The position numbers were made by a program, and so were the translations under genes. From NCBI RefSeq assembly GCF_037076465.1, contig NZ_AP028908.1, positions 1,302,001 to 1,366,000 of the forward strand: a DNA stretch of 64,000 nt. Direction: 5' to 3'. Numbering within the stretch: position 1 is the first letter of the stretch; each line of letters starts with the position of its first letter. Source of the stretch: Pectobacterium araliae. GTDB lineage: Bacteria; Pseudomonadota; Gammaproteobacteria; Enterobacterales; Enterobacteriaceae. The notes beneath the pieces are model-generated. The model made no database searches. It had not been told where the DNA came from and was given only the letters and a program-made list of their open reading frames with translations. This document shows, piece after piece, positions 2,198 through 20,928 of the stretch.

Positions 2198-3008
2198 TTT
2201 TTAATTGTCTCTTAATATCGTTATTGCGCTGTAATAGCTCTTGATTTTCCCGCAGTGGCATACTGTTTATTCAATATATCTGTGCAACGACGAGAAAAAA
2301 GTGACAATAAAAATAAAATTATTTTTCTTTATTGTCAGAATGATCCGGAAAAGCTTGTCACTCAAATCTTCTGTTAGACATAACTTGATACTTAGACTCG
2401 ATTAAATCGCATTTAATGTATAGCCGCTGCTAATCAATAGGGGGCTAAATGGTTTATTCAAAATAATAGATAACCCAGAGGGCACTCAGTCAGAGTAGTG
2501 GGGGGACAGTCGGAACATATCGAAAATCGTCAACCGGGTTGCGCTATGACGAGCATAAATCGGTTTTTATTATCCACAATAAATAGAGGTGGCTATTAAT
2601 GATGTTGATCGTCATCTAAATTGGCATTTTTATTGCTGGATTATTTATAGGATAAGAACAAAAATAATAATCAATCTTTCATAATTGAAGAGAGAGATAT
2701 AATTAGTCAAATACATTTTTTTGCTATGTTTATTTGATATTATAATATTCACGAAATGTATCCTTTATTTAATTCTGAAATTTTCACAAATATAGGATAA
2801 AAAATTGTTTTTTAAAATATGTTCAATATTTTTAATTTAAACGCATCGCTTAAATAGATTTTTACGCCTGATTTATTTTTTATTTAAAGTGACTTTTATA
2901 ATAAATAAATTTATTTTCATTGTCGCTTTTTCTTTGTTGCCACACAAAGCAAACAGAGGGGAATAATAATTTTCTAAACCAAAATAACTGACAAAGGGAA
3001 AGTGAAAA
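2198..3008. other. Gene-free AT-rich intergenic region
   Basis: This 811-bp stretch separates the glycoside hydrolase start from the first TonB receptor and must hold both promoters. It is very AT-rich, especially 2640–2900. I see no convincing gene. The last 110 bases resemble the leader of the second receptor (7050–7167), so the duplicated unit includes promoter-proximal DNA. No good Fur box was found by eye. Confidence 0.6.
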
Positions 3009-5384
3009 ATGAAAAATAAATACGGTATCTCTCGCTCTTCTGGTCTTGATGTGAGGAGGCGTATCTTTTTAACTGGGGTGCTTAATATTAATACCGCATT
3101 GCTTTTGGGGAGCACGGTAATACCTATAACAACCTATGCTGCGAGCGAGAATGACACCATTGCATTTTCGATTCCTTCTGGTGATTTGCAAAAAGGATTA
3201 TTGGCCATTGCAGAACAAAGCAAGCAGACTATTTCCTTTAATCCTGCATTGGTGGTGAATTATCAAAGTGCCGCGTTAACCGGTAATTACTCGACCCGGC
3301 AGGCGATTTTACGTCTGCTACAGAGTACGCCATTATTGTTAACTACGACGAATAATGGCACGTTGACCATTATCACCTCCCAATCTGATAATGCTGATGT
3401 GGCGAATGCCAATAGTAAAACCTTGCCAAGTATCACGGTTAGCGCAACGGGGGATGATGGCTTTTTGTCTTCGAGTACGACAACAACGCGTAGCGGTGCG
3501 CCATTGCGAACTACCCCTCAAACCATTAATGTTGTGAACAGCAACGTCATGGAAAAGCAATCTGCCAGAAACGTCACCGATGCATTGCGTAATATATCCA
3601 GCGTTACCGTGTTGCCTGGATCGCTTGGAAGCTCTACCGTCCAAATTCGTGGTTATCAATCTAATGTACTTATTGATGGTTTGAATGTTTCAGGCAGTTC
3701 GCCCCTTAACCTTCCTGCTATTGCATTAGACTCTGTCGAGGTAATCAAAGGACCTTCAGCGATGCTGAATGGTGCCGGTTCTAATGGCGGTATTGTCAAT
3801 TTGGTAAGAAAAAAACCTCAGGCCAAGCCTGCGCATGAAATAAAATTGGGATATGGCAGTTACAATGAACGAAGGTTGGAGATTGATAGTACCGGGGCAT
3901 TAACTGATGATGGGCGTTTGAGCTATCGTCTCATTGCTGCAGGGGCACAAAGTGATGATAGTGCCGCGCATTACGACGGTAAGAAAGAGTCTTATTTTTC
4001 ACCAACCTTAGGTTGGAAAGATGATACGACGGATTTTCAACTGGGTTTTACCCGGAATATCCAAACTACGCCCTTTATGCCCTATACCTTAATGTATAGG
4101 GGAAAACCTTGGACGGGTGACCTGCCGAAACCGTTAGGTAATAAGAACGATCAATTCAAACTGCGGCAGAGTGTTTATTATTACAATCTAGAGCAGACGT
4201 TGTCCGACCAGTGGACCTGGGTCAGTAAGGCCAGTTACGAGAACAGCGAGTCGTGGCAGTATGGCTGGTATAATGCCTACCCGCTTAATGATGATATGAC
4301 TACCTACCTAAATTCGTTTGCTCAAGGGGGGCATTATCGTTCTCTTAATACTGAAAATTATCTACGTGCCGAATATCACTGGGATGACGTGAAATCCACG
4401 ACGGTATTGGGTGTCTCTGCTACCCGGCAAAATAATACGTCTTTCCCTACCTACTGGTCGAATAACTGGACCTTAATCTCCATTCGCGAACCTCTGCCTA
4501 ATTTGCCGTTTGCCAAGAATGCGCATACAAAAGCATGGTCAGAGCAGCGACCATTGGGTGGATTTGTCTCACAGAATATCGACTATGACCGTTGGCACCT
4601 AGCAACGGGCTTACGTTATGATAGCTCATGGCACGGGGTATTCAATCATGGCGAGGCCAACGCCAATGAGCGTGAGGAAGTCTGGTCGCCTTCGGTTGGG
4701 CTGCTGTATGAAATTACTCCCTGGGTTGCTATTTATGGTAGTCACCAGAAAGGATACCAACCTTCGAACTATTTCGATAAAAATGGGGCTTTATTGCCTG
4801 CACCGATCACTTCGCAAAATGAATTCGGCTTAAAATTTGACCTACTCGATAGTCGTCTCAGCGTGACAACGTCGGCTTATCGTATTCAATATAAAAACAG
4901 TGTCTATTTCGATAATAATGAAGGTGGTTATGCCATTTCTCCGAATAAAGGCAGCCTCCGGGGAATTGAACTGGATATCCAGGGTAATGTATTGCCTGGA
5001 TTGAACGTTATTGGCAATTATAATCTTCTCAAAAGTAATGTCGGCGCAGGTGCAACCAAACGGTTGGGGAACCCCCAGCAACGGGCTTCGTTATGGTTAG
5101 ATTATGATTTTCAGTCTCCCCTGTTAGAAGGATTCTCCACCGGACTGGGAATGATATACAGCAGTGCTATTTATTCGGTCAATGCAGGAAAAAATTACAC
5201 CGTTCCTTCACAGTTGGAAACCGATGTCAGAGTAGGGTATAGCTACCGTAATTATAGTCTGGACCTGACTGTCAAAAATATTTTCGACGAAGATCTCTAT
5301 GTTGGCACACCAAGCGGACAACCTCAGTTTGTCCCGCTACTACAGCCGCGCTCGTTTCTGCTGACGGCCAGTTATAAGTTTTAA
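3009..5384 (+). CDS. TonB-dependent outer-membrane receptor with STN domain, copy 1
   Basis: This 791-residue protein should take up a ligand across the outer membrane using TonB energy. A long signal peptide ends near TTYA-A (residues 44/45). An STN (secretin/TonB short N-terminal) domain covers about 50–122 (PSGDLQKGLLAIAEQSKQ). A probable TonB box follows (LPSITVSA, about 139–146). The plug begins around 165 (TPQTINVVNSNVMEKQ) and contains the usual GGIVNLVRKKP segment. The rest is a beta-barrel ending in the aromatic Phe typical of outer-membrane proteins (LLTASYKF). Architecture matches FpvA/FecA-like siderophore receptors. STN domains normally talk to a FecR-type anti-sigma factor, but no sigma/anti-sigma pair lies nearby. 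The start follows an AAAGGGAAAG ribosome site. It forms a likely operon with the SbmA-like gene 66 bp downstream and is paralogous to the receptor at 7168. The ligand is unknown. Confidence 0.9.
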   Translation: MKNKYGISRSSGLDVRRRIFLTGVLNINTALLLGSTVIPITTYAASENDTIAFSIPSGDLQKGLLAIAEQSKQTISFNPALVVNYQSAALTGNYSTRQAILRLLQSTPLLLTTTNNGTLTIITSQSDNADVANANSKTLPSITVSATGDDGFLSSSTTTTRSGAPLRTTPQTINVVNSNVMEKQSARNVTDALRNISSVTVLPGSLGSSTVQIRGYQSNVLIDGLNVSGSSPLNLPAIALDSVEVIKGPSAMLNGAGSNGGIVNLVRKKPQAKPAHEIKLGYGSYNERRLEIDSTGALTDDGRLSYRLIAAGAQSDDSAAHYDGKKESYFSPTLGWKDDTTDFQLGFTRNIQTTPFMPYTLMYRGKPWTGDLPKPLGNKNDQFKLRQSVYYYNLEQTLSDQWTWVSKASYENSESWQYGWYNAYPLNDDMTTYLNSFAQGGHYRSLNTENYLRAEYHWDDVKSTTVLGVSATRQNNTSFPTYWSNNWTLISIREPLPNLPFAKNAHTKAWSEQRPLGGFVSQNIDYDRWHLATGLRYDSSWHGVFNHGEANANEREEVWSPSVGLLYEITPWVAIYGSHQKGYQPSNYFDKNGALLPAPITSQNEFGLKFDLLDSRLSVTTSAYRIQYKNSVYFDNNEGGYAISPNKGSLRGIELDIQGNVLPGLNVIGNYNLLKSNVGAGATKRLGNPQQRASLWLDYDFQSPLLEGFSTGLGMIYSSAIYSVNAGKNYTVPSQLETDVRVGYSYRNYSLDLTVKNIFDEDLYVGTPSGQPQFVPLLQPRSFLLTASYKF

Positions 5385-5450
5385 TCCGATACGGGTTCCT
5401 GGATGTGTGCTCAGGAACCCATTTATTTATTACGTGGTATTTATCTATTT

Positions 5451-6638
5451 ATGTTCAAATCTTTTTTCCCCAATCCTAAGCCTTTTTTCTTTTCTGCTCT
5501 GGTATGGAGCGTGTTTTGTATTGTGGTTTGGTTCGTATGGGTGCGCGATTATGCGGGATTTACCGACACCACATTACCGGTGACTGTCAGTCGATTTGTG
5601 TCGTGGCCTTATTTGTGGTTTTACTGTTATTACCTGATAGCCTCGATGTCATTTGGCATCTTCTGGCTTTTGTTTTGTCCCCATCGCTGGCAACGTTGGT
5701 CGGTGCTGGGCTCGATCTTAATCATTTTTATGATGAATTTTTCGGTTGAAATCGGTGTGACACTGAATGCCTGGTATGGGCCTTTTTATGATTTGATCCA
5801 GAAAGCGTTGACCCAACCTGGTGCGGTAACGTTGGCGGAATTTTATCAGGGCATTTTCACGGTATTGCGTATTACCTTGCTTTCCCTGACGGTAGGTGTT
5901 TTTAACCTGTTTCTGACCAGCCACTATATTTTCCGTTGGCGCAGCGCAATGAATGAGTTCTACATCGCGCATTGGTCGGTATTGCGCCATATTGAGGGTG
6001 CGTCGCAGCGCGTACAGGAAGACACTATGCGTTTCGCCTCTACGTTGGAAGGGCTAGGGATTCAACTTATCCAGTCTATCATGACGCTGGTCGCGTTTCT
6101 TCCGGTGCTGGCTACGCTCTCCAAACACGTCGGTAATCTGCCGTTGCTGGGCGATATTCCTTACGGTCTGGTGATCGCCGCAGTGGCATGGTCGTTGGTG
6201 GGAACGGGGCTGATTGCGTTGATCGGCATTAAATTACCTGGCCTGGAGTTTAACAACCAACGGGTGGAAGCCGCCTACCGTAAAGAGTTGGTCTATGGCG
6301 AAGATCATGCGGATCGCGCTGACCCGTTAACTGCGGCAGTGTTGTTTACCGCCGTCAGGAAAAATTATTTTCGACTTTATTTTCATTATACCTACTTCAA
6401 TGTCGCACGAATGTTCTACCTTAGCCTGGACAATATTTTCAGTCTACTACTGCTATTCCCGGCGATTATTGCCGGTACGCTAACTCTGGGCCTGATTACT
6501 CAAATTACCAATGTGTTTGACCGGGTGCGTTATTCATTTCAATATTTGATCAATTCTTGGTCGACGATTATCGAATTACTCTCAATTTATAAACGTTTAC
6601 GTGCATTTGAATCGGTAATGGATAAAGAAGAAATATAA
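5451..6638 (+). CDS. SbmA/BacA-family inner-membrane peptide transporter, copy 1 (shortened tail)
   Basis: A 395-residue membrane protein of the SbmA/BacA family. E. coli SbmA is a proton-driven importer that takes up microcins B17 and J25, proline-rich peptides and other modified peptides. Signature segments are present: [16 protein letters not shown] (about 180–195), NIPYGL-like [27 protein letters not shown] and [13 protein letters not shown]. At least six hydrophobic segments are visible. The start ATG at 5451 ([10 protein letters not shown]) is chosen because the paralogue at 9611 starts identically; an in-frame ATG at 5403 would add 16 residues. The protein stops at DKEEI, earlier than copy 2. 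Bases downstream still encode a tail like that of copy 2 (IAKNG...NPNFSR) in another frame, which indicates a 1-base insertion. It lies directly behind the TonB receptor and probably carries the same ligand across the inner membrane. Confidence 0.88.
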
Positions 6639-7167
6639 TCTTATTGCAAAAAATGGTATAGCTTATTCAAAAAATCCCAATTTTTCTCGATGGCACATAA
6701 GTATCTACTTTCAATTATATGACAATCAGGAAGTGAGAACGCATCAACCTCCTGATTGTCATACCTCGAGAATCCCATGTTTTTTTCATGGTTTATTGTC
6801 ATGATCTGCATTCTTTAATAGTAAAAGCCAGTGATATCGGCGATGTAATAAAAATACAGATTAATCAAATGATATTCTTTGCTATCATTATCTAATTTTG
6901 TGATATTTGATTAATTTTAAATATATTTTATTCTGGTTTTTTTATAAAAAAAGAAGGAATGTATCGATTTTTGTTGTGATGATAAGTGTTTGTTTTATGT
7001 ATTAATGGGATGCTGGTTCTTTTCAATTTATAAATTTATTTTTTTATTGATTATTAATTAAAAAGAAATTTATTCTTGTTGTCATTTTTCCTTTATCGAT
7101 GCACAGAACATAAGAAGATTAATAAAAATCTGTAAGTCACCATAATTAGCTAGGGAAAAATGAAAGT
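6639..7167. other. AT-rich intergenic region between the two receptor/SbmA cassettes
   Basis: The 529-bp gap begins with about 45 bases that still encode the lost tail of SbmA copy 1 in another frame. A perfect 14-bp inverted repeat follows (6718–6763). The rest is AT-rich and leads into the second receptor. ATCATTATC at 6884–6892 matches half of a Fur box, but the other half is poor. The final 110 bases resemble the leader of copy 1. Confidence 0.6.
6718..6763. repeat. Perfect 14-bp inverted repeat behind SbmA copy 1
   Basis: TATGACAATCAGGA at 6718–6731 is exactly reverse-complemented at 6750–6763, with an 18-base loop. There is no T-run after it on either strand, so it is not a classical terminator. 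It could be an mRNA-stabilising stem or a protein site. It lies between the two cassettes. Confidence 0.7.
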
Positions 7168-9540
7168 ATGAAAAAGAGATATGATACGCGCAACACCTCC
7201 GGCGCAGGTCTTAAGAAGCGTCTGTTTTTCACCAGTATGTTGAATATCAATACTGTGTTATTACTCGGGGCGACGGCAACTCCGATGCTAACCTATGCGG
7301 TGGGTGTAAATGACACTACCTCGTTTGCTATTCCAGCGGGGGACTTGCAAAAAGGATTATTGGCGATTGCTGAACAAAGCAAACAGACCATTTCTTTTAA
7401 TCCTGCACTGGTGGTGGATTATCAAAGTGCCGCGTTAGTGGGCAACTACTCAACCCGACAGGCTGTTTTAAGTCTGCTACAAGGCACACCACTGGTATTA
7501 ATCACCACGGATAATGGTACGCTGACCATTGTTTCGTCCCGATCTCAAGATGTGGATACGGCAAAATCCGATAATAAAACGCTGCCGGGTATTACGGTCA
7601 GCGCTGCGGGGGAAGAGGGATTTTTATCCTCAAACACGGCAACAACACGTAGCGGTGCACCTTTACAATTGACACCACAGTCTGTGGCGGTCGTTAACAG
7701 TGAGGTTATGCGTAAACAATCGGCTCAGACAGTGAGTGATGTATTACGCAATGTTTCCGGCGTGACGGTGATGCCCAGTTCGCTGGGATCCTCCAGCGTT
7801 AATATTCGCGGATACCAGGCCAGCGTTCTGGTTGAAGGGTTTAATGCGTCGTCCAGTAGCACGCCATTGGATTTCCCTGCTATTGCACTTGAGTCGGTTG
7901 AAGTCCTTAAAGGACCGGGGGCAATTCTGGTGGGATCAAGCTCTCCGGGCGGCGTTGTCAATATTGTGCGGAAAAAACCTCAGGCTGAAGCCAGAAATGA
8001 AATAAACATCGGCTACGGTAGTTATAATGAGCACCAACTCGGTCTTGATAGCACTGGCGCATTAAATGATGACGGACGCTTAAGTTATCGGGTTATCACC
8101 TCGGGAAGTAAAAGTGATCGCAATGCGGCACATTACGATGGCAAAAAAGATTTTTATTTTGCGCCGTCACTACGCTGGAAAGATGACACCACTGATTTTA
8201 CGTTGAGTTTCAGCCGTAATGTCCGAACCACGCCATTTAACCCTTACACGGTGATGTACCACGGTAAACCCTGGACCGGGAACCTTCCTGAGCCATTGGG
8301 ACGCAAAGATGACAAACTGACCCTGCGGCAAAATGTTTTCAGTTACAGTCTGGAACAAGTGCTGTCTGACCACTGGACATTTTTCAGTAAAGCAACCTAT
8401 GACGATAGCCAGTCTTATCAATATGGTTGGTATAATGGGCTCGAATTAGCAGAGGATATGACGGTCTGGCTCAATACCTTTAGTCAGGGAGGCGAAAGCC
8501 GTGCGTTAGATACCGAAAACTATCTGAAAGCGAAGTATGAATGGGGGGATTTAGCCTCTACCAGCATTGTGGGTGTCTCTGCATCGCGTACCAATTCGGT
8601 GACCTATCAGGCGTTGTCTTTTGGTGACTGGTATAATGTCCCTATCCAGCAACCTTTGCCGGATTTGCCATCGGCGAAAGCACCTTATCGAAAATACTAT
8701 GGTGAAAGCCGACCACTTGGCGCTTTCCTACAGCAGAACGTGGATTACAACGACTGGCATCTTACCTCCGGTTTGCGTTATAGCAGCGAGTGGCACGGTG
8801 TGTTCAATCATAGTGAAGCCAGCGACAGTGAGAGGGAAGAGGTCTGGTCGCCTTCCGTTGGGCTATTGTATGAAATCACCCCCTGGGTTGCTATTTATGG
8901 TAATTACATTAAAGGCTATCAACCCCCTTCCTACCGAAAAAACAATGGTGATCTGCTTCCTTCCCAGATCAGTAAACAGAATGAAGTGGGGCTAAAATTT
9001 GATTTGCTTGATAGCCGACTAAGCATTACCACGGCGGCTTATCGAATCAGATTCAATAATTATCAATATTTTAGTTATACCTCGGAGGATTATGTCTCGG
9101 GGCCGGGATATTCCAGTGAGGGATTTGAGGTCGATGTTCAAGGGAACGTATTACCTGGGCTGGATATTATCGGCCACTATAATTACGGCAAAACGGATTT
9201 CAGCGTGGATAGCGATGCGCATGAAGCATTACCACGTCATCACGCCAGTCTGTGGGCAAACTATCAGTTCCAATCGCCCCAGCTTAGCGGGTTTTCTGCT
9301 GGTGTGGGGTTGACCTATTCCAGTGCGGCAAACATGGATCGCCAGAAAGCGTACACCATTCCTGCTCAGCTACAAACCGATGCCAGTCTGGCCTACATCT
9401 ATGGTAAATACGGTCTGAATTTCACGGTTAAAAATCTCTTTAATCAGGATCTCTACGTCTCATCACTTGGTGGCGAACCGCAGTTTGTACCATTGCAGCA
9501 ACCGCGCTCGTTTTTGCTGACCGCCAGTTATCAGTTTTAA
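7168..9540 (+). CDS. TonB-dependent outer-membrane receptor with STN domain, copy 2
   Basis: A 790-residue paralogue of the receptor at 3009 with the same layout: signal peptide to about residue 45 (LTYA-VG), STN domain about 50–122 (PAGDLQKGLLAIAEQSKQ, nearly identical to copy 1), probable TonB box LPGITVSA, plug from about 165 with GGVVNIVRKKP, and a barrel ending LLTASYQF. Many blocks are identical to copy 1, including SPSVGLLYEITPWVAIYG. Extracellular loops differ, for example around residues 480–510 and 625–640, which suggests the two bind different variants of a ligand. The start ATG follows AGGG; a mini-frame ATGAAAGTATGA overlaps it, so the first ATG could affect initiation. It is followed after 70 bp by a second SbmA-like gene. 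No sigma/anti-sigma partner for the STN domain is present. Confidence 0.9.
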   Translation: MKKRYDTRNTSGAGLKKRLFFTSMLNINTVLLLGATATPMLTYAVGVNDTTSFAIPAGDLQKGLLAIAEQSKQTISFNPALVVDYQSAALVGNYSTRQAVLSLLQGTPLVLITTDNGTLTIVSSRSQDVDTAKSDNKTLPGITVSAAGEEGFLSSNTATTRSGAPLQLTPQSVAVVNSEVMRKQSAQTVSDVLRNVSGVTVMPSSLGSSSVNIRGYQASVLVEGFNASSSSTPLDFPAIALESVEVLKGPGAILVGSSSPGGVVNIVRKKPQAEARNEINIGYGSYNEHQLGLDSTGALNDDGRLSYRVITSGSKSDRNAAHYDGKKDFYFAPSLRWKDDTTDFTLSFSRNVRTTPFNPYTVMYHGKPWTGNLPEPLGRKDDKLTLRQNVFSYSLEQVLSDHWTFFSKATYDDSQSYQYGWYNGLELAEDMTVWLNTFSQGGESRALDTENYLKAKYEWGDLASTSIVGVSASRTNSVTYQALSFGDWYNVPIQQPLPDLPSAKAPYRKYYGESRPLGAFLQQNVDYNDWHLTSGLRYSSEWHGVFNHSEASDSEREEVWSPSVGLLYEITPWVAIYGNYIKGYQPPSYRKNNGDLLPSQISKQNEVGLKFDLLDSRLSITTAAYRIRFNNYQYFSYTSEDYVSGPGYSSEGFEVDVQGNVLPGLDIIGHYNYGKTDFSVDSDAHEALPRHHASLWANYQFQSPQLSGFSAGVGLTYSSAANMDRQKAYTIPAQLQTDASLAYIYGKYGLNFTVKNLFNQDLYVSSLGGEPQFVPLQQPRSFLLTASYQF

Positions 9541-9610
9541 TCTGATCAATGTGGGGCTGGAGCTTATCTCTGAAGCCCTGCTTGTCCATCATGCTGTATA
9601 GAGATCCACT

Positions 9611-10852
9611 ATGTTCAAATCTTTTTTCCCCAAACCTAAGTCGTTTTTCCTTTCAGCCTTGATATGGAGTACGTTTTGTATTTCCGTCTGGTACGGTTGG
9701 GTTCGTGATGATGTGGGGATCGCAAACAGTTCGTTGCCGACGAATGTCAGTCGATTTATTTCGTTACCCTACCTGTGGTTTTATGGTTACTACCTGATCT
9801 CGGTGGCGTTATTTTCCATCTTTTGGTTTTTGGTTTATCCCCATCGCTGGCAGTATTGGTCGGTACTCGGTTCAGCATTAATTATTTTTATGGCTTATTT
9901 TTCAGTGGAAATCGGCGTGGCGCTGAATGCCTGGTACGGGCCTTTTTATGACTTGATTCAAAAAGCGCTGGTTACCCAAGGTTCGATAACCGCGTCGGCA
10001 TTATATCAGGAGGTTTTTACCTTTCTCGGAATCATTATGCTTTCTGTTGCGGTGAGCGTTTTGAATCTGTTTCTGGTCAGCCACTATATTTTTCGCTGGC
10101 GAAGTGCGATGAACGAATACTACATCACTCACTGGCAGATATTGCGCCATATCGAAGGTGCAGCGCAGCGCGTGCAGGAAGATACTATGCGCTTTGCCAC
10201 GACGCTGGAAGGACTGGGGATTAATTTGATTAATGCCATTATGACGCTGGTGGCGTTTCTTCCGGTGCTCATTACGTTTTCTCCACATGTCCCTACTTTA
10301 CCGATACTGGGTGATATGCCTTATGGCCTGGTGATAGCCGCAGCAATATGGTCATTGGCAGGAACGGGACTGATTGCCTTGGTGGGTATTAAATTACCTG
10401 GTCTGGAATTTAACAATCAGCGAACGGAAGCCGCCTATCGGAAAGAGTTGGTGTACGGTGAAGATCATGCAAATCGCGCTGATCCGCTAACCGCCGCCGA
10501 ATTTTTTAGTGCCGTCAGAAAAAATTATTTCCGACTCTATTTTCATTACACCTATTTTAATATCGCAAGATTCCTCTATCTGCGAGCGGATAGCATTTTC
10601 AGCTTAATTTTACTGTTCCCAGCGATTATCGCCGGGACGCTTACTCTGGGCCTGATGACGCAGATTACCAATGTGTTTGACCGGGTGCGTGATTCCTTTC
10701 AATATTTGATTACCTCATGGTCGACGATTGTTGAGTTGCTCTCCATTTATAAACGGTTACGGGCTTTTGAGGCGATAATCGATCAGAAAAGCGATGATGT
10801 TATTGCAAAAAATGGAACATCTCATTCAATAAATCCCGATTTTTCCCGGTGA
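9611..10852 (+). CDS. SbmA/BacA-family inner-membrane peptide transporter, copy 2
   Basis: A 413-residue SbmA-family transporter, close in length to E. coli SbmA (406). It carries [53 protein letters not shown] and [16 protein letters not shown], and several long hydrophobic helices. Members import peptide antibiotics and other modified peptides driven by the proton gradient. Compared with copy 1 it keeps a hydrophilic tail ([18 protein letters not shown]). It sits 70 bp behind receptor copy 2, so one transcript probably makes both the outer- and inner-membrane steps of one import route. The real substrate is unknown; a peptide-like metallophore or a modified peptide would fit the pairing. 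Confidence 0.9.
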
Positions 10853-10934: not shown

Positions 10935-11552
10935 ATGGATCAGGAATATGTTGTTGTACAAAATCCTATCGCACCACAGCGGTTGTTTTTACTTTTTCAC
11001 GGTGTGGGTGATACCGCGACTGGGATGGCACCAATCGGCCACTATTTTGCGACTGCTTTTCCTGACGCGTTGGTTGTTAGCATTGGCGGACCATTCAGTA
11101 CGGGATTCGGCGAAGGGCGCCAATGGTTTTCCGTGCAGGGCGTGACAGAGGAAAATCGGCTATCACGCATTGAAGCGGTGACCTCGCGCTTTGTTGAAAC
11201 GGTACGGTCCTGGCAGCAAAAAAGCGGCGTGGATTTTGCCCGAACCACGCTGATTGGTTTCTCGCAGGGGAGCATCATGTCACTGGAAGCGTTAAAGTCG
11301 GAACCTAAACTGGCCGGACACATTGTGGCCTTCAGCGGACGTTTTGCGGTATTGCCCGATAATGCATTCAGCGATGTGGTCGTTCATTTGGTTCACGGCG
11401 AGGCCGATGGAGTCATTGTCGTCGATCATGCACGTGCCGCGGCGCAACGTTTTAAAACGCTGGGGACGAAGTTCACATTGGATACCGTGCCGGGTGTCGG
11501 ACATGGCATCGATCAGCGCATGCTGAATCACGCATTGGCATACCTGAAATAA
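10935..11552 (+). CDS. ypfH: Esterase YpfH, alpha/beta hydrolase
   Basis: A 205-residue cytoplasmic serine esterase of the phospholipase/carboxylesterase family. The nucleophile elbow GFSQG puts the catalytic Ser at 110; Asp158 (HGEADGV) and His190 (GVGHGID) complete the triad, and the oxyanion region is LFHGVGD. Length fits E. coli YpfH, which hydrolyses short acyl esters. The ATG at 10935 follows AGGAGAAAGAGA, a strong ribosome site. In E. coli ypfH lies next to ypfN and dapE; here it still points towards ypfN but is separated from it by a chemoreceptor and three gene remnants (11.9–14.9 kb), so that interval was inserted or expanded in this lineage. Physiological substrate unknown. Confidence 0.85.
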   Translation: MDQEYVVVQNPIAPQRLFLLFHGVGDTATGMAPIGHYFATAFPDALVVSIGGPFSTGFGEGRQWFSVQGVTEENRLSRIEAVTSRFVETVRSWQQKSGVDFARTTLIGFSQGSIMSLEALKSEPKLAGHIVAFSGRFAVLPDNAFSDVVVHLVHGEADGVIVVDHARAAAQRFKTLGTKFTLDTVPGVGHGIDQRMLNHALAYLK

Positions 11553-19008: not shown

Positions 19009-20928
19009 GTGCGCCGGGCATGGCGCGTAGCGCCTTGACGGGCGCTGTCCGTTGACTGTAGTGGTCAAGGGGCGACTTGGCGGTGAAAGTCCTCTACACA
19101 CCCGGCAAGGGGAAGTGTTAGCCGAACGGCAAGGGTGCCCACCGCGAGGTGGGATCTGAAGGAAGCTGAAGGCAAAATGCTGGCCTGACGAACAGGAAGC
19201 AGTTTAGGCGGCACAGCGGGGTAAGGTGGCAAATATCATCAAAGCCCAATACTTGCACAGAACGCTGTGACGTAAAGCTGACAGGCATAAGCAGGAAGGT
19301 CGCGCGAATTACCCCGGGAGGGCTGCACGTTTGCTTCAGGGCTACCGAGCGTCGAGAGGCGACGGGATGAACGTGCAGCAGTCAGCCGAAGCCGTAGTAG
19401 TGCTGCATAACTGGCAGCATGAAGGGCTGAACATGATTAACCGTGATTAGGACACCGATACTCGATGGGAATTAATGAGGCACAAGCGCAGAGCACTGCG
19501 GCCAGCGGCAGAGGAGACGGACAGTATCCGTCAGTGCTGCATGAGGGTGCTGAAATCCCCACGGCGGTCGGTGGGCAAACGAAAGCGGAAATGCCGTTGA
19601 CGATGGAAACGGTGATAACGAGAGAGAACCTGATGCTGGCCTATCAGCGCGTGGTGGAAAACAACGGCGCGGCAGGGGTAGATAACCTGAAAGTGACGGA
19701 GTTGAAGCCGTGGCTGAAACAGAACTGGGCGAGTATCAGGCAGGCATTGATTACGGGCGCCTACCAGCCGCAGGCGATACGCAGAGTGGATATCCCAAAG
19801 CCGGACGGCGGCGTGAGAACCCTGGGTATCCCGACGGTAGTGGACAGGCTTATCCAGCAGGCGATAGCACAACAACTCAGTCCGGTCGTGGAGCCGCACT
19901 TCTGCGAATCGAGTTACGGGTTCAGAAGTAACCGCAATGCGTGGCAGGCAGTGCAACAGGCACAGCGCTACATACAAAGCGGGAAACGCTGGGTGGTCGA
20001 TCTGGATCTGGAAAAGTTCTTTGACCGGGTGGATCATGACATTTTGATGTCACGTCTGGCGAGGCTGTCAGGGATAAACGGCTGTTGAAACTGATACGTC
20101 GCTACCTTGAAGCGGAAATGACGAACGGGTGCGAGACAGAGAAGCGAGGTAAGGGAATGCCGCAGGGCGGACCGTTGTCGCCGCTACTGTCGAACATTCT
20201 GCTGGATGAACTGGATAAAGAACTGGAGCGTCGAGGTCACAGCTTCTGTCGCTATGCGGATGACTGCAACATTTACGTGAGCAGTCGCAAAGCAGGCGAG
20301 CATATCTTTAGGGCAATCAGGGTGTACCTGAGAGACATACTGAAGCTAAAGGTCAATGAGCAGAAGAGTGCGGTGGCGCGACCGTGGGAGCGTAAGTTCC
20401 TGGGATACAGCGTGACACGGCACAAACAGACCCGACTGAAGATCGCAGGGAGCAGTGTCGAGAGGCTGAAGGAGAAGATCCGTAGCCTGACGACAGGGCA
20501 CGCGACGAAATCAGTGAAAGGCGTAATCAATGAACTCACACCGATACTGCGAGGCTGGATGAGCTACTTCAGATACACGGAAGTAAAAGGAGTTCTGGAG
20601 AAGATTGACGGCTGGGTCAGGCGTAAACTGCGCAGTCTACTGTGGCGGCAATGGAAACGAACGTATACGCGAGCCCGAATGCTAATGCGAGCGGGCTTGT
20701 GTGAAAAGCGAGCGTGGAGGTCGGCGAGTAACCAGCGAGGAGCGTGGTGGAACGCGGGGTCGAGTCACATGAATGATGCGATAAAGACGGCGCAGTTCAG
20801 ACGACTCGGCTTGATATCACTAGTGGAGCAGCAACGGCAGTTCCAGAGTTAACATGAACCGCCGTATGCGGAACCGCACGTACGGTGGTGTGAGAGGACG
20901 GCGGGAGTAATCTCGCCTCCTACTCGAT
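19009..20928 (+). mobile_element. Group II intron (IIC-like) inserted behind the cspE terminator
   Basis: The element starts with GTGCGCCGGGC, a standard 5' GTGYG boundary, and ends with a domain V/VI region: GCCGTATGCGG...CCGCACGTACGG (about 20865–20887), then a domain VI stem ending CCTACTCGAT at 20928. Between lies a maturase frame of about 460 residues without an endonuclease domain. The position directly behind a Rho-independent terminator and the maturase C-terminus (GAWWNAGSSHMN...FRRLGLISLVEQ) both point to class IIC. Exact ends are by motif and could be off by a few bases. The maturase has a frameshift, so mobility needs another copy. Confidence 0.85.
19465..20852 (+). pseudogene. 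ltrA: Group II intron reverse transcriptase/maturase, frameshifted
   Basis: The maturase is split between two frames. The first (19465–20088) covers the N-terminus and RT blocks up to EKFFDRVDHDILMSRLAR, then goes out of frame and stops. The second (20085–20852) resumes with LIRRYLEAEM, contains MPQGGPLSPLLSNILLDE, the catalytic CRYADDCNIYV, the thumb/X domain (LRGWMSYFRYTE) and the C-terminus. Reading GCG AGG C-G TGT C as expected for RLARRVRDKRLL would need one more base near 20063, so a single-base deletion explains the break. The intact protein would be about 463 residues. Without a programmed shift there is no active product. Confidence 0.88.

What the first reader, a model, noticed from the sequence alone, without database searches (positions are those of the whole stretch)
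3009..10852. Tandem duplicated import cassette: STN-type TonB receptor plus SbmA/BacA peptide transporter
Two consecutive units each pair an outer-membrane TonB receptor with an SbmA-family inner-membrane importer, same strand, 66–70 bp apart. E. coli sbmA has no such partner. The pairing makes a complete two-membrane route and suggests that SbmA here plays the part that FptX/RhtX-type permeases play for siderophores. Barrel loops differ between copies while plug, STN and transporter cores are nearly the same, which suggests two related ligands: peptide metallophores, modified peptides, or bacteriocins made by competitors. I know of no described system of this exact layout in Pectobacterium.
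Basis: partly seen in the sequence, partly recalled or inferred. Interest (0 to 1): 0.85.

Follow-up and report, generated by a model that had tools for sequence, protein, structure and literature searches.

The report
Grafted receptor–SbmA peptide import pairs
A bacterium carries two copies of a gene pair that joins an outer-membrane receptor to a proton-driven peptide importer (SbmA), and the receptors look like natural hybrids, with a signalling head shared with a neighbouring receptor on a different barrel, which offers a way to find out what SbmA normally imports.

Summary
In detail: R1 3009-5384, S1 5451-6638, R2 7168-9540, S2 9611-10852, all +, gaps 66 and 70 bp. "Nearly the same" is wrong: R1/R2 are 62% and S1/S2 76% identical. 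S1/S2 are SbmA by sequence (six ladder glutamates kept). None of 24 congeners has a true SbmA, and 0 of 71 SbmA loci examined elsewhere has a receptor within 1.5 kb. What 14 of 24 congeners do have, near the same flanking gene, is an import locus: FecI/FecR, receptor R3, then an ABC transporter of the SbmA fold in the slot that SbmA fills here. This genome keeps that locus 20 kb from the pairs. R1 and R2 share R3's upstream block and STN/TonB-box head (STN 80-89%), but their plug and barrel are only 27-39% identical to R3's, the barrel lying nearer to Burkholderia receptors. Best reading: head-grafted receptors wired into R3's FecI/FecR circuit, each with a proton-driven SbmA in place of the ABC pump, importing small peptide-like ligands. 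Chimaerism is fairly well supported (the short STN tree alone does not settle it); shared signalling and peptide cargo are inferred. New variant of a known kind.

The parts
2903..3008 (+). Upstream block of R1, homologous to the upstream block of R3 (shared TGTC..CTTTT element and leader)
   Evidence: Local alignment of 150-bp upstream stretches: R1-R3 z 7.1, R1-R2 z 10.2, 0 of 500 dinucleotide shuffles as good; aligned with 14 congener R3 upstream stretches. R1 against congener L145 alone is weak (z 2.1, 19 of 500 shuffles as good).
3009..5384 (+). R1, TonB-dependent receptor with STN signalling head, 791 aa
3147..3449 (+). R1 STN domain and TonB-box region (residues 47-147): part of the shared head (TonB box placed by eye)
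   Evidence: STN 70/79 identical to R3, barrel 137/509; identity to R3 falls between residues 131 and 151
5393..5420 (+). 10-bp hairpin between R1 and S1 (possible attenuator or mRNA-processing hairpin; none listed between R2 and S2)
   Evidence: pattern match only, and such patterns as a class are no more than slightly above shuffles (14 found, mean 10.3, sd 4.0)
5451..6638 (+). S1, SbmA-type peptide importer, 395 aa
   Evidence: six ladder glutamates present
7025..7147 (+). Upstream block of R2, homologous to that of R3
   Evidence: R2-R3 z 17.4, R2-L145 (congener) z 11.6, 0 of 500 shuffles as good
7168..9540 (+). R2, TonB-dependent receptor with STN head, 790 aa
7306..7608 (+). R2 STN domain and TonB-box region (residues 47-147)
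   Evidence: STN 63/79 identical to R3, barrel 147/507
9611..10852 (+). S2, SbmA-type peptide importer, 413 aa
   Evidence: six ladder glutamates present
10935..11552 (+). Esterase gene that marks the downstream border of the locus
   Evidence: NCBIfam PRK11460 299.8 vs 191; found in 24 of 25 genomes of the genus; by the coordinates it lies 3.2-15.2 kb from R3 in 13 of the 14 congeners with R3 (G012 has no esterase match)

Best explanation
Two complete import routes for small peptide-like ligands, added to a resident import locus. The resident locus (PmbA/TldE-like metallopeptidase, ExbD, ExbB, TonB, FecR, FecI, receptor R3, SbmA-fold ABC transporter) lies 20 kb upstream. R1 and R2 are natural chimaeras: upstream block, signal peptide, STN signalling domain and TonB box belong with the R3 lineage, plug and barrel with a Burkholderia-like receptor lineage. 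Each chimaera is followed by a proton-driven SbmA in the slot where R3 has its ATP-driven relative. Proposed working: ligand binds the R1 or R2 barrel; TonB (probably the locus's own TonB-ExbB-ExbD) powers passage; the STN head reports transport to the single FecR beside R3; FecI switches on R3, R1 and R2 and the transporter genes behind them; SbmA carries the peptide through the inner membrane with protons. Shown: layout, head/body mosaic, shared upstream block, SbmA residues, genomic position. Inferred: shared FecR, co-transcription, peptide cargo, direction of transfer.
For: Head against body: STN of R1/R2 is 89%/80% identical to R3, about as close as R3 is to its congener orthologues (89-92%), while barrels are 27%/29% identical to R3 but 34-37% to three Burkholderia-type receptors whose STN is only 29-36% identical. 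Body tree joins R1/R2 with those receptors (99/97) and a tree holding R1/R2 with R3 is rejected, p-AU 0.012 (the group was named after the identities were seen). Identity crosses over just after the TonB box. Synonymous differences: heads pS 0.54 for all three pairs, S1-S2 0.56 (0.50-0.63), R1-R2 barrel 0.80 (0.74-0.87), so head and SbmA seem to coalesce later than the barrels. Upstream blocks of R1, R2, R3 are homologous. None of the genome's seven FecR matches lies in the window; one lies beside R3. In 14 of 14 congener R3 loci FecI, FecR and the ABC are adjacent. Peptide cargo: PmbA/TldE-like peptidase in the locus, a peptidase behind the ABC in 4 of 7 congener stretches read, SbmA itself, and published pairs FhuA-SbmA for microcin J25 (PMC10233263, table passage) and PupB-YddA for ubonodin (PMC10037499, passages). 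Swapped heads are known to work: the PupBA chimaera signals through the PupB head with PupA specificity (Koster 1994 as told in PMC9249621 section 8, read).
Against: The STN-only alignment is short: a tree putting R1/R2 with the Burkholderia heads is not rejected (p-AU 0.363) and the R1+R2+R3 group has support 79/88 only. R4 is a long branch in the body tree and the program warns of long-branch joins. R1 upstream is only weakly like the one congener block tested (z 2.1). STN scores of R1/R2 are below Pfam's cut-off. The pS ranges of R1-R2 head (0.42-0.67) and plug (0.64-0.88) overlap slightly, and codon constraint could lower pS in heads and SbmA. No Fur box better than shuffles, and no peptidase lies inside the two pairs. 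The PmbA-like protein misses the NCBIfam PmbA cut-off (392 vs 438). No expression, ligand or transport data.
Confidence: 0.6

Rival explanations
1. Ordinary ferric-siderophore receptors; the neighbouring SbmA genes are incidental or serve as siderophore permeases in the way of FptX/RhtX, and the cargo is an iron chelate rather than a peptide.
For: R1/R2 pass the TonB-siderophor subfamily cut-off; closest solved structures to R1 are labelled FoxA/CntO, enantio-pyochelin, ferripyoverdine and FhuA receptors.
Against: The pair occurs twice in tandem and the same slot is held by an SbmA-fold ABC transporter in 14 of 14 congener R3 loci; peptidases accompany the locus; no Fur box better than shuffles. 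FhuA itself serves microcin J25 with SbmA, so a siderophore-like barrel does not exclude peptides.
Confidence: 0.25
2. No graft: R1, R2 and R3 are plain paralogues whose STN heads stayed similar because they bind the same FecR while the barrels diverged in place.
For: Shared upstream block and same chromosomal interval fit local duplication; strong selection on a shared partner would slow the head (dN 0.06-0.12); the STN tree test does not reject other placements.
Against: Synonymous sites, which such selection should not slow, are also less diverged in the heads (pS 0.54) than in plug/barrel (0.76-0.82); barrels group with Burkholderia receptors, not with R3. Even if true, the shared-FecR prediction stands.
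Confidence: 0.25
3. Decaying or silent duplicates without present function.
For: S1 is shorter at its C-terminus than S2, with homologous DNA continuing past its stop; a third SbmA of this type in the genome is broken; no true SbmA in 24 congeners.
Against: All four frames are open, all six ladder glutamates are kept, dN is far below dS for S1-S2 (0.155 vs 1.04).
Confidence: 0.1

Closest known systems
FhuA + SbmA route of microcin J25 (E. coli)
   Same: TonB-dependent siderophore-type receptor plus SbmA gives a full path for a lasso peptide (PMC10233263, passages read)
   Different: The E. coli genes are not a pair (recalled); here they are adjacent and duplicated and the receptors have signalling heads
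PupB + YddA route of ubonodin (Burkholderia cepacia complex)
   Same: Receptor plus transporter of the same fold superfamily (PMC10037499, passages read); nearest plasmid-record receptors to R2 are Burkholderia/Paraburkholderia ones beside TonB-ExbB-ExbD-ABC
   Different: ABC (ATP) instead of SbmA (proton); whether those Burkholderia genes are the PupB/YddA of the paper was not tested
R3 - ABC locus of the same genus
   Same: Same head, upstream block, gene order, spacing (61 bp vs 66/70) and chromosomal interval
   Different: Different plug/barrel (27-39%); ABC with an ATPase domain and with ladder positions 203, 269, 287 and 378 not glutamate
Ferredoxin uptake (Fus) and protease-associated import systems
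   Same: Receptor, inner-membrane transporter (FusD) and protease logic, described in Pectobacterium (PMC6793856, abstract and one passage seen)
   Different: No M16 protease among the ORFs profiled beside R1, R2 or R3 here; receptors score as the siderophore type
PupA/PupB receptor chimaeras (Koster 1994)
   Same: A head from one receptor on another's barrel signals through the head's partner (PMC9249621 section 8 read)
   Different: Made in the laboratory; R1/R2 look like a natural case

Membership tests
SbmA/BacA (SLiPT) peptide transporters | Family profile above curated cut-off | tested here: met
   NF008306 649.5 and 664.5 vs 492; PF05992 507.8 and 515.7 vs 24
SbmA/BacA (SLiPT) peptide transporters | Six-glutamate ladder (E193, E203, E269, E276, E287, E378) | tested here: met
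   S1, S2 and 4 of 4 other SbmA aligned keep all six; 5 of 5 SbmA-fold ABC proteins do not (a fifth chosen SbmA, L164, dropped out of the script for want of a matching frame). Ladder list from PMC13316013 (passages)
SbmA/BacA (SLiPT) peptide transporters | N-terminal TM0 segment, no ATPase domain | tested here: met
   67 residues of S1 and S2 fall in the TM0 columns; 4 of 5 ABC proteins have 0-13, the fifth (P. caribensis, frame taken stop to stop) 53; no ABC_tran match in S1/S2
SbmA/BacA (SLiPT) peptide transporters | Proton-coupled peptide uptake | not testable with these tools
   needs a transport assay
Cell-surface-signalling (FecA/PupB-type) receptors | N-terminal STN domain | tested here: inconclusive
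   PF07660 26.3 and 25.0 bits, below 28.4, but 89% and 80% identical to the STN of R3, which passes at 31.1
Cell-surface-signalling (FecA/PupB-type) receptors | Cognate FecI/FecR genes adjacent | tested here: not met
   No FecR match inside the window; a FecI/FecR pair lies beside R3, 20 kb away
Cell-surface-signalling (FecA/PupB-type) receptors | Ligand-dependent induction through FecR | not tested
   needs a reporter assay
Fus / protease-associated import | M16 protease in the cluster | tested here: not met
   No M16 match among the ORFs of L144, L006 and the two pairs that were profiled; two L006 ORFs (4941-5702, 6264-6884) and the rest of the genome were not scanned for it. An M16 protease follows the ABC in 1 of 7 congener stretches read (L156)
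Lasso-peptide producer cluster | Transglutaminase-like lasso protease (PF13471) | tested here: not met
   0 matches in the genome; the control genomes ring in 2 of 14
FptX/RhtX siderophore permeases | MFS-type permease (recalled) | tested here: not met
   Only SbmA_BacA and ABC_membrane_2 match S1/S2 at E <= 0.001

The most novel reading that the evidence does not exclude
A natural plug-and-play uptake regulon: one FecI/FecR pair listens to three receptors that share a grafted head but bind different peptides, so sensing any one peptide switches on all three import routes, two proton-driven and one ATP-driven. Cassettes carrying a new barrel and an SbmA are recruited by acquiring the resident promoter and head. 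SbmA here would have a dedicated, inducible physiological ligand.
Probability: 0.4. Interest if true: 0.75.

Novelty: new variant of a known kind. Interest (0 to 1): 0.6.

Why it matters
SbmA is known mainly as the door that antimicrobial peptides exploit; its normal cargo is unclear (recalled). A receptor-SbmA pair with a signalling head would let the cargo be found by reporter induction. The locus also shows an ABC transporter of the SbmA fold and SbmA, proposed to have evolved from a YddA-like ABC ancestor (PMC13316013, abstract and passages), filling the same genetic slot 20 kb apart, and it looks like a natural case of the receptor head swap made in the laboratory by Koster et al. 1994.

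Tried and rejected
Close relatives of R1/R2 in named genomes: one scan of genome contigs; its two short patterns matched 47 stretches and gave one unrelated Winogradskyella hit; weak as a negative because the patterns were narrow. Order-wide search with R2 at E <= 1e-130: 3 of 394, own genome and two congeners. Class-wide with R2 at E <= 1e-70: 1 of 369, own genome; in both at most two candidates per genome were scored, so relatives can be missed. Lasso-peptide biosynthesis in the genome: no PF13471. AtxE2-type isopeptidase for the S9 peptidase at the R4 locus: best NCBIfam name but 96.4 bits against a cut-off of 400, so not filed there. Fur boxes upstream of R1, R2, R3/FecI: none better than shuffles; the TonB-FecR gap is the nearest (30 of 300 shuffles as good). 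Homology of the receptor-transporter spacers: none. Structure model of R2: mean pLDDT 44.1, not used. Defence-system library: no match for R1 or S1. The STN-tree test of R1/R2 + Burkholderia was not rejected (p-AU 0.363) and is told as evidence against. Plasmid sbmA: 174 records match S2; two E. coli plasmid neighbourhoods read, no receptor annotated, the plasmid gene table being incomplete.
Full report
WHAT IS THERE. The window is C1:1302001-1366000 of a 4.66-Mb genome. Two units in tandem, each a TonB-dependent receptor followed by an SbmA-type transporter: R1 3009-5384, S1 5451-6638, R2 7168-9540, S2 9611-10852, gaps 66 and 70 bp. Domain profiles agree.

HOW SIMILAR ARE THE COPIES. R1/R2: 486/789 = 61.6%; S1/S2: 299/395 = 75.7%. 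By part: signal peptide 22/46, STN 63/79, plug 68/104, barrel 307/520. Synonymous differences per site: S1-S2 0.562 (0.495-0.631), R1-R2 STN to TonB box 0.542 (0.423-0.672), plug 0.756 (0.639-0.876), barrel 0.804 (0.742-0.869) (bootstrap 95%). So the barrels are at saturation while the head and the transporter are not: barrels have been exchanged, or heads and transporters homogenised. Head and plug ranges overlap slightly, and codon constraint could explain part of it.

TRUE SbmA, AND RARE. S1 aligns with E. coli SbmA over residues 1-394 (E 3.7e-166). S1 and S2 keep the six ladder glutamates named in PMC13316013 (passages read), as do 4 of 4 other SbmA aligned; 5 of 5 SbmA-fold ABC proteins do not. 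In the genus, 25 of 25 genomes have some match to S2, but in the 24 congeners none exceeds 31% identity and those frames are ABC-sized or pieces. In an order sample 31 of 393 others, in a class sample 18 of 368 others and in a family sample 144 of 362 others have a match at the thresholds used, 176 distinct genomes in all; best full-length identity to S2 is 68%. I examined the flanks of 71 of those 176 (the best-scoring, handed out as loci): 0 of 71 have a receptor within 1.5 kb, at least four of them with a shorter flank at a contig end; the same profile finds receptors in 6 of 6 control loci, four of which (R1-R4) were in its training set. Four longer stretches, including a nearer partial relative (G791, 73%, split frame), have none within about 7-8 kb.

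THE RESIDENT LOCUS. 20 kb upstream lie a PmbA/TldE-like metallopeptidase, ExbD, ExbB, TonB, FecR and FecI (all -), then divergent receptor R3 and an SbmA-fold ABC transporter (+). R3 orthologues (E <= 1e-60 to R2) occur in 14 of 24 congeners, and 14 of 14 have FecI, FecR and the ABC next to them (in G020 the ABC and FecR are in pieces). In 7 congener stretches that reach past the ABC, a peptidase follows it in 4: DPPIV/S9 by profile in L154 and by likeness in L155 (in pieces) and L160, M16 by profile in L156. By the coordinates the esterase at window 10935-11552 lies 3.2-15.2 kb from R3 in 13 of those 14 congeners; in G005 no other ORF of 130 aa was listed between ABC and esterase. In four congeners without R3 (L151, L152, L158, L159) none of the locus's genes was found in the 14-15 kb upstream of the esterase. 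Here the interval also holds a subtilase autotransporter (as in several congeners), GH127/GH43-type genes and the two receptor-SbmA units. The units therefore sit in the R3 locus's own interval.

CHIMAERIC RECEPTORS. A search of the genus with the R1 head (residues 1-147) finds three strong matches in this genome (R1, R3 73%, R2 66%; next is R4 at 44%) and one in each of the 14 congeners with R3 (66-71%). R1-R3: STN 70/79, plug 32/104, barrel 137/509; R2-R3: 63/79, 41/105, 147/507. Against three Burkholderia-type receptors (L161-L163), R1/R2 are 29-36% in STN but 42-53% in plug and 34-37% in barrel. The body tree joins R1/R2 with the Burkholderia receptors (99/97) apart from R3 (100/100), and a forced R1+R2+R3 clade is rejected with p-AU 0.012, a group named after the identities were seen. 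The STN alignment is short: the rival grouping is not rejected (p-AU 0.363) and the R1+R2+R3 grouping has 79/88. The program warns about the long R4 branch. Identity to R3 drops below identity to the Burkholderia receptors between residues 131 and 151, just past the TonB box. The upstream 150 bp are homologous too: R2-R3 z 17.4, R1-R3 z 7.1, R1-R2 z 10.2; R1 against one congener block is weak (z 2.1); R4's is not like R1's or R2's (z 0.5, 0.3) and is weakly like R3's (z 3.2, 6 of 500 shuffles). So upstream block, signal peptide, STN and TonB box form one block shared with R3.

CIRCUIT. None of the genome's seven FecR matches lies in the window; one is next to R3 and one near R4. Since the STN domain is the part that contacts FecR and head swaps move signalling with the head (PMC9249621, section 8 and passages), I infer that R1 and R2 report to the FecR next to R3. 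No Fur box better than shuffles was found.

RELATIVES ELSEWHERE. On plasmid records the nearest receptors to R2 are Burkholderia and Paraburkholderia, 35-37% (176 records at E 1e-40; 59 at 1e-60). In the three neighbourhoods read they stand beside TonB, ExbB, ExbD and an SbmA-fold ABC, with FecR or FecI-FecR in two and a TldE-like frame in one: much the same parts list as the R3 locus. Ubonodin enters Burkholderia by PupB and the ABC transporter YddA (PMC10037499, passages); whether these are the same genes was not tested. Microcin J25 uses FhuA, TonB-ExbBD and SbmA (PMC10233263, table). SbmA is thought to descend from a YddA-like ABC transporter (PMC13316013, abstract and passages); here both kinds stand in the same slot behind receptors with the same head.

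A THIRD, BROKEN COPY. Another SbmA remnant (79% to S2, 77% to S1, at most 70% to ten other SbmA proteins tried) lies near receptor R4, its ABC, an S9 peptidase and a FecI/FecR pair.

LITERATURE. No paper on an adjacent receptor-SbmA pair turned up in the open-access library with these searches: SbmA + TonB-dependent + adjacent (4 papers listed; passages of two seen, none on such a pair); SbmA + TonB + receptor + gene cluster + Pectobacterium (0); three of SbmA/YddA/BacA/TonB-dependent (3 listed, passages of one seen). Subscription papers are mostly not in the library.

VERDICT. Observation confirmed; interpretation partly supported. Best reading: natural head-grafted receptors with SbmA replacing the usual ABC importer, inserted in and probably controlled by a resident import locus. 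Novel as a combination, built from known parts.

Noticed in passing
L007:7388-7957 (-), own genome C1 about 2597390-2597970: Broken SbmA of the same type as S1/S2 near an R4 receptor - ABC - S9 peptidase locus with a FecI/FecR pair close by.
   Followed up: partly
window 19138-20928: Group II intron (Rfam matches at both ends) whose reverse-transcriptase-like reading frame (named by eye) is split over two ORFs (19465-20088, 20085-20852), between a cspA thermosensor and a fluoride-riboswitch gene, probably crcB.
   Followed up: partly
window 6639-6700: DNA past the S1 stop is still homologous to the 3' end of S2, so S1 seems to have lost a C-terminal tail.
   Followed up: partly
window 5393-5420: Hairpin between R1 and S1 with none listed between R2 and S2; may uncouple receptor and transporter expression.
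   Followed up: no
L189, L190, L191, L188 (relatives): In three relatives sbmA lies beside what look like type III secretion genes (names recalled from sequence, no profile run); in L188 it is split in two frames beside a possible harpin gene.
   Followed up: no
L154:7035-9383, L156:4995-7715, L160:5253-7601: The slot behind the R3-linked ABC holds different peptidases in different congeners (DPPIV/S9 in L154 and by likeness L160, M16 in L156), which hints at ligand-specific processing.
   Followed up: partly
L105 (NZ_CP025841.1), L106 (NZ_CP141865.1): E. coli plasmids carry an sbmA near transposase genes, without an annotated receptor gene; its role there is unclear.
   Followed up: no
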